From contig OX639992.1 of the NCBI GenBank assembly GCA_951828515.1, positions 5,496,217-5,560,216 of the forward strand: a DNA stretch of 64,000 nt, given 5' to 3'. Made by a program: the position numbers and the translations under genes. Source of the DNA: an uncultured Poribacteria bacterium. Lineage in GTDB: Bacteria > Poribacteria > WGA-4E > WGA-3G. The notes under the pieces were generated by a model, which saw only the letters and a list, made by a program, of their open reading frames with translations, was not told the DNA's origin and searched no databases. Shown here in pieces: positions 2,711 through 19,992 of the stretch (its first letter is position 1; every line of letters begins with the position of its first letter).

Positions 2711-2870
2711 GGTCAATGGTACCCACAACCTAAAGGTTGGGGCTTGTGCTTCCTCGCGACTGCGGTTTTCTCAGAGAGTCCACCGTCTGACTGTCGCTCC
2801 ACTTTAGGCAGCCAAGCCTGCCCGTTTGATATTGATAGCAGCGTTTACGTCTCGGTCATGGTGTGAACCA
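2711..2870 (-). ncRNA. Presumed omega-RNA of the tnpB element
   Basis: By analogy with characterised TnpB systems, the right end transcribed from the tnpB strand is the guide-RNA scaffold and the flanking bases are the guide. Hairpins: GGCAG-CCAAGC-CTGCC at 2807-2822, overlapping the tnpB stop, and CAACC-TAAA-GGTTG near 2725-2738. Both recur in the solo element at 19481 with the same loops but different, still complementary stems. The guide would be minus-strand sequence running down from 2710 (TCCGATGATTGGTGCC). The 5' limit is a guess. Confidence 0.6.
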
Positions 2871-3916
2871 CAGTCGGGACATGACCACTGTCTATCCGAA
2901 AGAGAGAGTGCTTTGTTAGGGTATCCACAATCACTGCAAGGTTTTGTTGTTGCTGTCCATTGACCGATTTTGACGAAGGTTTTACCGTGCTTCGCACACT
3001 TCTGTTCGAGTCTCTGCAGAAACTGGTAGAAGGCGTGATCAGAGACTTTGCGTCCCCAAAGGCGTTTCATACCGTCAAGGTTCAACGTTTCAAAACAGAG
3101 TGTGTCAAACTCTGTGCAAAGTTCGGTCGCAAGTTTCCATTGCCAATCTTCTCTTTGTCTGGCAACTTTCCTGTGTTGTCTTGACAAGGCACGACATGCC
3201 CGATAGGAGTTATTAGAACCTTTGACTTTACGACTCAGTGCTTTGCTCAGGGATCGCAACGTTTTCAGGGATTGTTTGAAAAACTGCGGAGATTCTATCT
3301 TAGTGCCTGCGTCGCTTGTCAGGAATGTTTTGTTTCCGTAATCAAACCCTGCGCTCTTACCCGTCTTGGGCTTGGGTTCGGAATCGTCAACATTCTCGCA
3401 CGAAAAGCATATCCAATAGTCGCCGCACGTGTCGCGTTTGAGTGTGATCGTCTTGATTATACCTGTGATTTCACGGTGTTTGTGGAAGGAAAACCAAGTC
3501 TCTATACAATTGATTTTGATACGATTCCCTTCAAGTTCGTATCCGGCTTGTGTGAAAGTCATGGAATTGTATTTATGACGGGGTTTGATTTTCGGTCTAC
3601 CTACTTTGCGGGTTGTTTTACCCGCTTTTCGGTCTTTGATATTCTGAAAAAAAGCGTCTTGGGATTTACCATAACGCAGCACAACGTCTTGCACAACTTG
3701 ACTCGGCAGGTCTTTCCAATGCGGTTTTGTCCGCTTTTTGAGTTTCGCAACATGGGCATTTATCCGATATGCAGATAGGTTCTTACCAAATATGCGATAA
3801 TACCGACGTGCCAAAAGCAAGATATGAACGTGTATATCCCACATATCGTCAATCATATTGCCGAGTTTGATTGTGTTAGATTGATTTTGAAGTCTGAATT
3901 TGTAAGATTTTCTCAT
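2804..3916 (-). CDS. tnpB: TnpB, RNA-guided RuvC nuclease
   Basis: TnpB proteins are compact omega-RNA-guided DNA nucleases of IS605-type elements and ancestors of Cas12. Seen (numbered from the upstream GTG at 3967): RuvC Asp209 in GFDYGNKT, Glu293 in CFETLNL, a CSDCG...CPDCG zinc ribbon (Cys 344, 347, 363, 366) and Asp373 in HDRDVNAAINI. All catalytic positions are intact. The ATG at 3916 starts MRKSYKFRLQ, the usual family N-terminus, and is preferred (370 aa); the GTG at 3967 adds 17 residues and has a weak AAGG upstream. The last codons overlap a hairpin of the presumed omega-RNA. Confidence 0.93.
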   Translation of the reverse strand: MRKSYKFRLQNQSNTIKLGNMIDDMWDIHVHILLLARRYYRIFGKNLSAYRINAHVAKLKKRTKPHWKDLPSQVVQDVVLRYGKSQDAFFQNIKDRKAGKTTRKVGRPKIKPRHKYNSMTFTQAGYELEGNRIKINCIETWFSFHKHREITGIIKTITLKRDTCGDYWICFSCENVDDSEPKPKTGKSAGFDYGNKTFLTSDAGTKIESPQFFKQSLKTLRSLSKALSRKVKGSNNSYRACRALSRQHRKVARQREDWQWKLATELCTEFDTLCFETLNLDGMKRLWGRKVSDHAFYQFLQRLEQKCAKHGKTFVKIGQWTATTKPCSDCGYPNKALSLSDRQWSCPDCGSHHDRDVNAAINIKRAGLAA

Positions 3917-4115
3917 TGGAATATCAGGTATCAGGCGTTTATGCCCAGTCAAGTGGGAGGCAGACACGTAACCTTGCGATTACGCTTGATTTGTCTGCTA
4001 ACCTGATACTATAATTACACAACATTTCTATGTTAATGTCAAGTTTAATTTAGACTATCAACCCAAACGCTGCCTACATCCCATAAACTAAAGCATGGGG
4101 ATTTGGCGGAGGATT

Positions 4116-4241
4116 GTTAAAACCTGAAATCATTTCAAGATCTTCCTTCTTTCCAGTCCGATAGTGCATCACGAACTTGTAGCTTGGAACGCCGTTCTGT
4201 TCCCGTCCGATCGCATGGAAGAAATAGACGAACTTTGCCTT
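4116..4241 (-). pseudogene. Upstream fragment of the IS-split gene
   Basis: On the minus strand, starting directly after the rqcH stop codon and in the same frame, a coding-like stretch reads KFVYFFHAIGREQNGVP, then YKFVMHYRTGKKEDLEMIS and GFN, where the element begins. With the fragment at 2426-2710 it forms one continuous frame. No start codon or ribosome site precedes it, so the gene had already lost its 5' end, perhaps by a rearrangement that placed it against rqcH. Confidence 0.55.
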
Positions 4242-17348: not shown

Positions 17349-18809
17349 ATGAGATTTGAATGGTTCGTAGCCTCCCGCTACCTACGCTCACGACGCAAAC
17401 AATCCTTTATTTCAATTATCAGTATTATTTCCATCGGGGGTGTAGCACTCGGTGTCGCAACAGTGATTCTTGTAAGTGCCGTATTAGATGGCGTTGAACA
17501 GGGACTGAAAGAAAGGTTTCTCGCAAACGAGGCGCATGTTGTTTTCCGGTTGCACGATAGCAGTTTCTTTAGCAATTACCAAAAGCATATTTCACAAATT
17601 GAAACAATTGATGAAGTCGTAGCGACATCACCAGTTATTTGGGCACAGAGTGCTGTCTTTCAGGAACGCAGCGACACCATTCAAGACGTAATTTACATTA
17701 AAGGCATCGATCCCGTTGAGGAAGACAAAGTCACCGGTTTCTCAAAATTCGTGGATGGCTCAACTGCGTTACAAGACTCACAGTACATTGAAAACGCTCG
17801 ACTCATCAGAGATGAAACGATCACAGGAGGGATTGTACTCGGAGGACGGTTGGCGGCTCGTCTCGGTGTCATCAAAGGCGACGTGCTGCGCCTTATCGTG
17901 AATCTTGCGAAACATCCGGTAAACGAGTCAATGCTCATACCGGACTTGGCGAACTTCGTTGTGATTGGGTTCTATGAGTCTGAATTGGCGGTTTATGATA
18001 ACAACTTTGGGTTCATCCATATAGATGCCGCCCAAAAAATGTATAATAAACCGAATCAGGTCAATACGATTTTCGTTCGATTAACCGATGCGGAATTAGC
18101 CCCTCGGACTGCAAGACAGATTGAGGATAAGGTTCAGTTCTCTGTTTTGGAAGGAATGCCGGATGCCAGAACGTGGATGGAGATGCAGGCACCACTCTTC
18201 TCAGCACTTCGATTGGAAAAGATAGCGACCGTCATTATTGAAGCACTTATCATTTTGGTCGCATCCTTTAACATCGCGAGCACGCTGATCATGACCGTGA
18301 TGGAAAAGACAAAAGATGTCGGGGCACTACGAACGCTCGGTGCTTCACGCGGCAATATTATGAGAATTTTCATAATTCAAGGCAGTGTCATCGGGATGCT
18401 TGGAACGTTGTTAGGCACGGTGTTGGGACTTGTTCTCTGCTGGCTTCTGAGTTATAATTCAGTGCGCCCGTCTTACTGGTACGCCGTTGTACTTATTGTG
18501 CCAATTTTCCTACAAGTGCTAATTGCCCTGCGACGAATAATACCACGCCGTAAAGGGTGGGTGTTCGCGATCGGTATTTTATGGCTCATAGCGATAGGGT
18601 TCGCGCTCTACTGTGCCGTTACACCAATTTCGCTCGCGGATCTCGGGTTGAGCCAAGTCTATCAGATGAATCAACTACCGATACAGGTGAATTGGTTCTT
18701 TGTTGTTTTCATCAATATACTTTCATTTTTAATCTGTTGGCTTGCGACGCTATACCCGGCATGGCAAGCGGCAAACCTGAAGCCAGTTGAAGCCCTACAA
18801 CATGAATAA
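17349..18809 (+). CDS. lolC: Lipoprotein-releasing ABC permease LolC/LolE
   Basis: Inner-membrane permease that, with LolD, extracts lipoproteins for the outer membrane. N-terminal ASRYLRSRRKQSFISIISII leads into the first membrane helix; a large periplasmic domain spans about 55-290; the FtsX-type core TLIMTVMEKTKDVGALRTLGA follows; the end is TLYPAWQAANLKPVEALQHE, the classical family tail. At 486 aa it is longer than the usual 400-415. The excess lies between the second core helix and the last one (about 365-425) and contains two extra hydrophobic segments (WYAVVLIVPIFLQVLIAL and FAIGILWLIAIGFALYCAV). Only one permease gene is present, so it may work as a homodimer. Confidence 0.92.
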   Translation: MRFEWFVASRYLRSRRKQSFISIISIISIGGVALGVATVILVSAVLDGVEQGLKERFLANEAHVVFRLHDSSFFSNYQKHISQIETIDEVVATSPVIWAQSAVFQERSDTIQDVIYIKGIDPVEEDKVTGFSKFVDGSTALQDSQYIENARLIRDETITGGIVLGGRLAARLGVIKGDVLRLIVNLAKHPVNESMLIPDLANFVVIGFYESELAVYDNNFGFIHIDAAQKMYNKPNQVNTIFVRLTDAELAPRTARQIEDKVQFSVLEGMPDARTWMEMQAPLFSALRLEKIATVIIEALIILVASFNIASTLIMTVMEKTKDVGALRTLGASRGNIMRIFIIQGSVIGMLGTLLGTVLGLVLCWLLSYNSVRPSYWYAVVLIVPIFLQVLIALRRIIPRRKGWVFAIGILWLIAIGFALYCAVTPISLADLGLSQVYQMNQLPIQVNWFFVVFINILSFLICWLATLYPAWQAANLKPVEALQHE

Positions 18810-19503
18810 AGACAAACTTATCCGCATCGTAGATTTACACAAATCCTACTACGATGGCGAGTCAGAACTTCCGGTTCTTCAAGGCATCGACCTTGAAATA
18901 TACATGTCAGAATTACTCGCAGTCGTCGGGGCATCAGGTGTAGGGAAAAGCACGCTGCTTCATATTATTGGGACACTTGACAGACCCACAGCAGGCAGCG
19001 TTTTATACAACGAACAAGACGTATTCACACTCTCCGATACAGAGCTTGCTCGGTTTCGGAACAAAGAAATCGGTTTTGTGTTTCAATTTCATCATTTATT
19101 ACCGGAATTTACAGCACTCGAAAACGTCGCAATGGGTGCATTAATTACAGCATCAAATAATAAGACAGTTTATAAAGAGGCAGAATCATTACTCGCTTAT
19201 GTTGGGCTATCCGAAAGGCTTTCACACTATCCGAGCCAATTGTCTGGTGGTGAACGGCAACGCGTCGCAATTGCACGCGCACTGATTAATCAACCGAAGA
19301 TTGTACTCGCTGACGAACCTACGGGTAACCTTGATCGACGGAGCAGCGAGGCGGTCTTAGAACTACTTTGGGATTTGAACGCCACATCTGGGCAGACCTT
19401 TGTTATCGTAACTCACAATCAAGAACTCGCCCAGCAAGTAGATCGGGTTATCCAACTCGTTGATGGAAAGGTTGTTGACACGTCAATGGTACCCACACGC
19501 TAA
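18802..19503 (+). CDS. lolD: Lipoprotein-releasing ABC ATPase LolD
   Basis: Cytosolic ATPase of the Lol exporter. Walker A GASGVGKSTLL, Q-loop in FVFQFHHLLPEF, signature LSGGERQRVAIARAL, Walker B IVLADEPTGNLD and the H-loop in VIVTHNQE. The ATG at 18802 overlaps the lolC stop by 8 bases, a tight translational coupling; a TTG at 18787 would add five residues and is less likely. The last residues after KVVD (TSMVPTR and the stop) are encoded by the inserted element at 19481-19890. Removing the element restores KVVDS and a TAA stop, so the native protein was a few residues shorter. Confidence 0.94.
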   Translation: MNKDKLIRIVDLHKSYYDGESELPVLQGIDLEIYMSELLAVVGASGVGKSTLLHIIGTLDRPTAGSVLYNEQDVFTLSDTELARFRNKEIGFVFQFHHLLPEFTALENVAMGALITASNNKTVYKEAESLLAYVGLSERLSHYPSQLSGGERQRVAIARALINQPKIVLADEPTGNLDRRSSEAVLELLWDLNATSGQTFVIVTHNQELAQQVDRVIQLVDGKVVDTSMVPTR

Positions 19504-19600
19504 AGCGTGGGGCTTGTGCTTCATAGCGACTGCGGTTTGCTCAAAGAGTCCACCGTCTAACTGTCGCTCCACAATAGCTGCCAAGCCAGCTATGCACCGA
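19481..19600 (-). ncRNA. Presumed solo omega-RNA
   Basis: Homologous to the right end of the tnpB element. Hairpin 1: ATAGCTG-CCAAGC-CAGCTAT (19574-19593), same loop as the tnpB copy but a different stem. Hairpin 2: CACGC-TAAA-GCGTG (19495-19508), same loop, different stem. Loops conserved with covarying stems suggest selection on RNA structure. The guide would be TGTCAACAACCTTTCC, read on the minus strand down from 19480, within lolD. Confidence 0.55.
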
Positions 19601-19890
19601 AGTGCCTGATCTTATGCAACATGTGATTTATCAACGGGGGCGGACGTTACGCCTGCTCCCCTATACATGCAACGGATACCCGAAAGGGCTTTGTCAATAT
19701 AGAGGCGTGTGAGGCTTTTACGTGATAGTCTCAATTGACGAGCGTTCCGACAACACATCAATCACAACCTATGCCGAACACTATGATATATCTTATCGGA
19801 TTTTGATGAGAGTGTCAAGTTTATTTTTACGACAAACCTAAACACCGTCTACATCCCGCAAGCCAAAGCATGCGGATTTGACGGGGGAGT
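19481..19890 (-). mobile_element. TnpB-less IS605-type element with conserved omega-RNA end (410 bp)
   Basis: Both ends match the tnpB element at 2711-4115: right end with GGGTACCATTGAC on the minus strand and the block around GCGACTGCGGTTT / AGAGTCCACCGTCT; left end with ATCCGCATGC...GCGGGATGTAG after TTAAC. It encodes no protein; the middle (about 19600-19790) has no clear match to tnpB. It sits precisely at the former lolD stop codon: joining 19480 to 19891 gives GAC AGT TAA. Non-autonomous, presumably moved by a Y1 transposase elsewhere. Confidence 0.82.
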
Positions 19891-19992
19891 GTTAAGGGAA
19901 TCTTACAGCTCCTCAGTCGTGTTGGAATTAACCAGAAACCATAGCGGAACGTAGTGAAACAATGAGCAGAAGCCCATAATTAGAAAAAGGAA

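What the first reader, a model, noticed from the sequence alone, without database searches (positions are those of the whole stretch)
19481..19890. Solo TnpB-less element keeps a covarying omega-RNA structure that could be served by the TnpB at 2804-3916
Two IS605-type elements 15 kb apart share both ends. At three hairpins the loop is unchanged while the stem differs but still pairs: CCAAGC loop (GGCAG/CTGCC vs ATAGCTG/CAGCTAT), TAAA loop (CAACC/GGTTG vs CACGC/GCGTG), and the left-end hairpin (CCCAT/ATGGG vs CCGCA/TGCGG). Covarying stems suggest selection on the RNA, yet the second copy has no tnpB. One nuclease with two guide RNAs, one from a 410-bp solo locus, would be a trans-acting omega-RNA arrangement.
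Basis: partly seen in the sequence, partly recalled or inferred. Interest (0 to 1): 0.78.

Follow-up and report, generated by a model that had tools for sequence, protein, structure and literature searches.

The report
Guide-RNA-only jumping genes in sponge bacteria
A 410-bp mobile element in a sponge-symbiont bacterium carries no protein gene, yet keeps a complete, structurally constrained guide RNA that most likely programs a TnpB nuclease encoded elsewhere in the genome, and it belongs to a large, previously unnamed set of such guide-only elements.

Summary
Element A (2712-4116, TnpB) and solo element B (19482-19891, 410 bp, no ORF) share both ends. The host is a Candidatus Poribacteria relative. 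A 21-sequence omegaRNA alignment covaries strongly (0/500 shuffles). The same is true of 29 tnpB-less copies alone, with the terminal TnpA-type hairpin left out.

B is one of many. In three well-assembled genomes, 39 of 103 omegaRNAs have no tnpB within about 1.5 kb. B's family has 16 aligned copies in 12 genomes, with target-precise insertions: filled = TTAA-[element]-guide, empty = TTAA-guide. This is exactly a TnpB target arrangement. A is the only close TnpB in this genome with the same insertion motif and RE ending. Complete tnpA+tnpB elements with these ends exist in a relative.

Unexpectedly, most solos also carry a ~200-nt covarying 5' RNA module. D1 is a pseudoknot also found as the leader of most tnpB genes examined. 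D2 is a junction found in solos only. Neither has an Rfam match.

Best reading: B is a PATE-like non-autonomous IS605 derivative whose omegaRNA guides an A-type TnpB in trans. Anatomy is shown; expression and trans loading are inferred. New variant of a known kind.

The parts
19482..19891 (-). Solo element B (410 bp), PATE-like IS605 derivative without ORF
   Evidence: Ends shared with A; precise empty sites for sister copies; 16 aligned family copies
19892..19895 (-). Target / transposon-adjacent motif TTAA at B's left end
   Evidence: Empty sites of sister copies read TTAA|guide or TTAG|guide
19856..19875 (-). Left-end hairpin (CCGCA/TGCGG), DNA hairpin of the TnpA type, outside the omegaRNA
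   Evidence: Sequence
19790..19818 (-). Sigma-70-like promoter TTGACA-17-TAAGAT pointing into the element
   Evidence: Consensus scan 10/12, 1 found vs 0.6 expected; the region is not conserved in the family (64%)
19707..19782 (-). 5' RNA module D1 (leader-type, pseudoknot GTGATTG/CAATCAC in sister copies)
   Evidence: Most conserved part of the B family, 92%; equivalent D1 of other solos covaries; related leader fold before tnpB genes
19596..19706 (-). Module D2, solo-specific RNA segment between D1 and the omegaRNA
   Evidence: 87% conserved in the family; D2 probes hit 24 of 39 solos and 0 of 65 tnpB-bearing elements
19482..19595 (-). OmegaRNA scaffold of B (114 nt): P1 19574-19593, P2/P3 19525-19570, UUUA-loop hairpin P4 19491-19513
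   Evidence: CM R1 match 98 bits; covariation in solos only; length and UUUA loop as in ISDra2 (PMC10097598)
19462..19481 (-). Guide encoded by the flanking DNA, GTGTCAACAACCTTTCCATC
   Evidence: First bases beyond the right end
18787..19503 (+). lolD-like ABC transporter ATPase ORF whose stop codon lies inside B's right end
   Evidence: ORF, Pfam ABC_tran; relatives with this junction lack B
2712..4116 (-). Element A (1405 bp), TnpB-only IS605-type element; TTAA target at 4117-4120
2804..3916 (-). TnpB (370 aa), RuvC D/E/D and zinc finger kept; candidate partner nuclease
   Evidence: Pfam OrfB_IS605 and Cas12f1-like_TNB; aligns with ISDra2 TnpB 8bf8, E 1e-41
3928..4009 (-). D1-type pseudoknotted leader RNA of the A tnpB gene
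   Evidence: Alignment A4, 97% paired, score 0.447 vs 0.162 shuffled
2712..2823 (-). OmegaRNA of element A
   Evidence: R1 match 100 bits
2692..2711 (-). Guide of element A, CTCCGATGATTGGTGCCACG

Best explanation
B is a non-autonomous (PATE-like) derivative of an IS605-type transposon. It keeps the left-end hairpin, an outward transcription unit and the entire omegaRNA plus right end; the tnpB reading frame is replaced by a structured noncoding segment. It was inserted 3' of a TTAA by a Y1 transposase acting in trans. Its transcript ends in the omegaRNA followed by a guide copied from the flanking lolD DNA. A TnpB of the A clade (here the one at 2804-3916) should load that RNA and cut alleles that lack the element (TTAA followed directly by the guide sequence). 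Cutting of the empty site would favour retention or homing of B, as proposed for omegaRNAs expressed with their own TnpB (PMC10278001). Shown here: anatomy, insertion specificity, absence of tnpB, structural constraint in solos, matching TnpB and TnpA families. Inferred: transcription, 5' processing, loading in trans, retention.
For: Scaffold stems covary in 29 solo copies alone: 95.6% paired, 9 of 12 pairs with double changes, 0/500 shuffles. 39 of 103 omegaRNAs in three well-assembled genomes lack a nearby tnpB. B's family has 16 aligned copies in 12 genomes. Exact empty sites of sister copies place TTAA directly before the guide, including one with an unchanged guide for copy L186. A-clade TnpBs (83-90% identical) mostly carry the same TTAA/TTAG start, GCACAAG and TTGAC/TATGAC end as B's family, unlike the other close TnpBs read here. 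B and A-clade TnpB co-occur in 10 of the 12 genomes with B (Fisher p = 0.013). A keeps D/E/D and the zinc finger. tnpA+tnpB elements with these ends and an A-type TnpB exist in relative G005. B's scaffold is 114 nt with a UUUA loop; the functional ISDra2 scaffold is 116 nt with a UUUA loop (PMC10097598).
Against: No RNA data. Two genomes (G019, G025) have B-family solos but no TnpB over the A-clade cut-off. No Y1 transposase with matching ends is in this genome. The shuffle controls and the Fisher test do not correct for relatedness. The A/B-type scaffold shows only a weak candidate (UGG/CCA) for the terminal pseudoknot known from ISDra2. The promoter match is near chance.
Confidence: 0.66

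Rival explanations
1. B is an ordinary ends-only MITE/PATE. Its ends are kept only because the TnpA transposase needs the DNA hairpins; the omegaRNA is not used.
For: Both end hairpins are TnpA-type structures; PATEs without any known RNA role exist (PMC3119063).
Against: P1-P3, which TnpA is not known to need, covary in solos when the terminal hairpin is left out (P2-P3 counted). The kept right end spans the whole 114-nt scaffold. D1/D2, far from the ends, are more conserved than the left end and covary in other solos.
Confidence: 0.14
2. The pairing in solos is inherited: solos arise repeatedly from, or exchange right ends with, tnpB-bearing copies, so there is no selection on solo RNA itself.
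For: L261 is a chimera of A-type ends with the module of the other solo group, so exchange happens. The P2 variant in L190/L203 resembles that of other elements.
Against: D2 was not detected in any of 65 tnpB-bearing elements yet 99.6% of cells pair over D1+D2, so it has no tnpB-bearing donor in the set. The B family is old (roughly 75-86% identity to B) and still structured.
Confidence: 0.1
3. The solo RNA acts on TnpB but not as a cutting guide: it is a decoy that sequesters TnpB, or a regulator whose active part is D1-D2.
For: D1-D2 is the most constrained part of B. Its D1 is shared by solos with three different omegaRNA types. TnpB mRNA is reported to feed back on TnpB cleavage (PMC10278001).
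Against: Guides and target motifs remain in the correct arrangement at the insertion sites examined, as needed for cutting; this follows from insertion and is not proof of use, but a decoy would not need it.
Confidence: 0.1

Closest known systems
PATEs of Haloquadratum walsbyi (PMC3119063)
   Same: Short, transposase-free, subterminal palindromes, no inverted repeats or target duplication, many copies, related to IS605-type ends.
   Different: No guide-RNA role or conserved internal RNA was described there; some are only 52 bp, whereas B keeps the whole omegaRNA scaffold and a conserved ~200-nt 5' RNA module.
PATE-like element of Halanaerobium hydrogeniformans (PMC7290912)
   Same: Has the LE hairpin, the last 58 nt of tnpB and the whole 160-nt RE, which would span an omegaRNA.
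   Different: Single copy, looks like a simple deletion; no structured insert, no family, no covariation test.
ISDra2 TnpB-omegaRNA (PMC8612924, PMC10097598)
   Same: RE-derived RNA, ~116-nt scaffold, UUUA loop, guide from flanking DNA, TAM at the left end, homologous nuclease with the same catalytic residues.
   Different: ISDra2 carries its nuclease in the same element and uses TTGAT; B uses TTAA and must be served in trans.
IStrons (group I intron plus IS605/607 ends; own knowledge)
   Same: Noncoding structured RNA inside an IS605-type element.
   Different: No Rfam match to any intron in the solos scanned.

Membership tests
PATE / non-autonomous IS200-IS605 element | No transposase gene, too short to code for one | tested here: met
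   No own ORF in 19482-19891; no tnpB within about 1.5 kb upstream
PATE / non-autonomous IS200-IS605 element | Subterminal palindromes matching an IS605 element | tested here: met
   LE and RE hairpins shared with A and with tnpA+tnpB elements in G005
PATE / non-autonomous IS200-IS605 element | Insertion 3' of a short fixed motif without target duplication | tested here: met
   Exact empty sites of sister copies: TTAA|guide, no duplication; B's own site is only shown to be B-free in relatives
PATE / non-autonomous IS200-IS605 element | Mobilised in trans by a Y1 TnpA | tested here: inconclusive
   Matching tnpA element in relative G005, none in this genome
TnpB omegaRNA (OMEGA guide RNA) | RE-derived conserved scaffold structure | tested here: met
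   Covariation 0/500 in all copies and in solos alone
TnpB omegaRNA (OMEGA guide RNA) | 3' guide from flanking DNA, with TAM plus guide contiguous in the empty allele | tested here: met
   for sister copies; B itself by analogy
TnpB omegaRNA (OMEGA guide RNA) | Transcribed and bound by TnpB | not testable with these tools
   No RNA or protein data
Active TnpB (for A) | RuvC D/E/D and zinc-finger cysteines | tested here: met
   Alignment with 8bf8, the ISDra2 TnpB structure
IStron | Group I intron in the element | tested here: not met
   No Rfam intron match at permissive threshold

The most novel reading that the evidence does not exclude
Guide-RNA-only transposons form a widespread class in Poribacteria. 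They encode a composite noncoding RNA (pseudoknot leader D1, solo-specific junction D2, omegaRNA, guide) and live by supplying guides in trans to the TnpB nucleases of other elements; D1-D2 is a dedicated module that works with at least three omegaRNA types.
Probability: 0.45. Interest if true: 0.8.

Novelty: new variant of a known kind. Interest (0 to 1): 0.64.

Why it matters
TnpB is the ancestor of Cas12, and how guide RNAs became separate genes from their nucleases is an open question. A large natural set of mobile, nuclease-free guide genes with defined targets (empty sites in sister genomes) is a direct model for trans-acting guides. It also makes 'does a parasite of the parasite use the nuclease?' testable. 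The conserved D1 leader before most tnpB genes examined and the solo-only D2 module are structured RNAs without an Rfam family, possibly needed to express or load a guide that is not part of the tnpB mRNA.

Tried and rejected
1) Single-sequence folding of B's omegaRNA: z = -1.2, no evidence alone. 2) Rfam at permissive thresholds on A, B and a dozen other loci: nothing relevant, so no known intron, ribozyme or HEARO-type RNA. 3) Viral contigs for the D2 core: none. 4) A Y1 transposase with matching ends in this genome: none; the six hits found are IS200- or RAYT-like with unrelated flanks. 5) Exact empty site at B's own locus: relatives with the junction lack B, but the intergenic DNA has diverged, so the exact boundary comes from sister copies. 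6) Nuclease-dead (TldR-like) TnpB considered for A: rejected, catalytic residues present. 7) Coding potential of B's interior: rejected, 1- and 2-nt indels among conserved copies. 9) Literature searches for trans omegaRNA in MITEs found no such report in the open-licence library; subscription papers could not be checked.

Full report
What is there. The window lies at 5,496,217-5,560,216 of a single-contig 5.85-Mb genome. Its close relatives are Candidatus Poribacteria MAGs (that these are sponge symbionts is largely own knowledge). Element A is a TnpB-only IS605-type element, and B is a 410-bp element with the same ends and no gene. On the minus strand the right ends are 96/110 identical and the left ends 74/97. 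The left-end hairpin is not part of an omegaRNA, and both it and the right-end hairpin are the kind of DNA hairpin a Y1 transposase recognises.

Exact borders. I joined the two flanks of 14 solo copies and searched the genus. Many relatives have the uninterrupted site. Filled sites read TTAA-C...TTGAC-guide and empty sites read TTAA-guide, or TTAG-guide for one copy; this is clean for copies L182, L183/L350, L186, L189 and L192. Three pairs (L183/L346 and L184 against L353 and L354) are less clean around the motif. There is no target duplication. So the target motif is TTAR, the element starts with C, and B is 19482-19891. In the empty allele the motif sits directly before the sequence that the solo's guide copies, which is the arrangement TnpB cleaves. 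For copy L186 one relative keeps an unchanged 20-nt guide match after TTTTAA (L359). At B's own locus the relatives with the lolD-aminotransferase junction lack B, but their intergenic DNA has diverged. B's right end now supplies the stop codon of lolD.

Covariation. Seventeen right ends next to tnpB, three solo right ends and B gave alignment A1 (21 rows): 12 of 21 pairs with changes on both sides, score 0.334 vs 0.120 in shuffles, 0/500, and sliding controls fail. The stronger test uses 29 tnpB-less copies only (A3): 96.9% of cells paired, score 0.397 vs 0.157. Without the terminal hairpin it is still 95.6% paired, 9 of 12 pairs with double changes, 0.420 vs 0.173. The shuffles ignore relatedness and some variants descend from few events, so this is strong but not tree-aware evidence. 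By length and arrangement B's scaffold (114 nt, UUUA loop) matches the functional ISDra2 scaffold (116 nt, UUUA loop; PMC10097598).

How common solos are. The covariance model finds 28 omegaRNAs here at E <= 0.001 and matches in 36 of 60 genomes searched, nearly all in the same genus. I fetched about 1.6 kb upstream of each strong hit in the well-assembled genomes G005 and G017 and used the 24 strong hits of G000: 56 have a full tnpB, 8 a partial one, 39 none. The 39 include some end fragments. B's own family has 16 aligned copies from 12 genomes. One solo in G017 exists as five nearly identical copies at different sites (L301, L302, L305, L306, L307), a sign of recent movement.

Which TnpB. 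TnpBs of the A clade (83-90% identical) mostly sit in elements starting after TTAA or TTAG and ending in GCACAAG...TTGAC or TATGAC, as B's family does. The other close TnpBs of this genome mostly have a CCGAAG...TATCAC end and different left-end motifs; L040, L041 and L043 share the TTGAC end but are only 49-53% identical to A. So A is the best partner in this genome. Across 38 genus genomes B and A-clade TnpB co-occur in 10, B alone in 2, A alone in 9, neither in 17 (Fisher p = 0.013, not corrected for phylogeny). A keeps the catalytic D/E/D and the zinc finger of ISDra2 TnpB. Complete tnpA+tnpB elements with A-type TnpB and these ends exist in G005 (L128 read in full; adjacent tnpA hits next to three other A-type tnpBs). 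This genome has no Y1 transposase with such ends, so B may now be immobile here.

An unexpected RNA module. Between promoter and omegaRNA most solos carry about 200 nt of structured RNA. D1 is a pseudoknotted fold. In 15 solos of the commonest type D1+D2 have 99.6% of cells paired, 21 of 38 pairs with double changes, score 0.527 vs 0.207. D1-type leaders of the same topology precede most of the tnpB genes examined, 97.1% paired, 0.447 vs 0.162 in 19 of them. D2 was detected in 24 of 39 solos and in none of 65 tnpB-bearing elements. B's version of D1 is the most conserved part of its family (92%, against 76% for the left end) and is shared, at about 66-71% identity, with solos whose right ends belong to two other TnpB types. 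L261 joins A-type ends to the other solo group's D1-D2, so the module is exchanged. No Rfam family matches in the loci scanned. The module was found by sequence in 23 of 85 phylum genomes, 21 of them in this genus.

Mechanism. I think B is transcribed from its own promoter region (19790-19818 is a good match, but one match is near chance) or by read-through. TnpB trims the RNA to the scaffold, as shown for other TnpBs (PMC10278001), and the complex cuts alleles lacking B. That would help B persist although it pays for neither TnpA nor TnpB. Steps from transcription onward are inferred. D1-D2 may substitute for what the tnpB mRNA normally provides, such as stability or loading; this is a guess.

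Comparison and novelty. As an element B meets the tested definition of a PATE (PMC3119063). One Halanaerobium PATE-like sequence also keeps a whole right end (PMC7290912). What seems new is the scale, the evidence of constraint on the guide RNA inside solos, and the dedicated 5' RNA module. I found no report of this in the open-licence library, but subscription papers were not searchable. I therefore call it a new variant of a known kind.

Noticed in passing
window 3928-4009 (-) and upstream of most tnpB genes examined: A conserved pseudoknotted leader RNA (D1), with the 3' closing strand present as a direct repeat just before the tnpB start codon; no Rfam match.
   Followed up: partly
L196, L197, L205-L207 (ends ..GGGGGGAGTATGTCAA) and L208/L209: Solo elements with two further right-end types that carry a homologue of B's D1 module; the L196-type right end belongs to a TnpB family not identified here.
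   Followed up: partly
L250 and L277 (genome G005): Two copies of another A-type-ended solo with an unrelated ~250-nt interior (GTGATGGACAGCACGAAATGTCC...), no Rfam match; in L277 the omegaRNA is interrupted by a repeat.
   Followed up: no
L059-L063 (genome G000): Y1 transposase genes flanked by their own short palindromic or direct repeats, resembling RAYT/REP systems.
   Followed up: no
TATCAC-type omegaRNAs, e.g. L034, L243: Stem-1 loop GATAGC is complementary to GCTATC at the right end (GGTACC/GGTATC in L032), probably the terminal pseudoknot known from ISDra2; B has only a weak UGG/CCA equivalent. Not counted statistically.
   Followed up: no
window 19501-19503: The insertion of B replaced the end of lolD, so the transporter ATPase now ends in codons supplied by the transposon.
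   Followed up: partly
genomes G019 and G025: B-family solos without a TnpB above the A-clade cut-off; either a more distant TnpB serves them or they are stranded.
   Followed up: no
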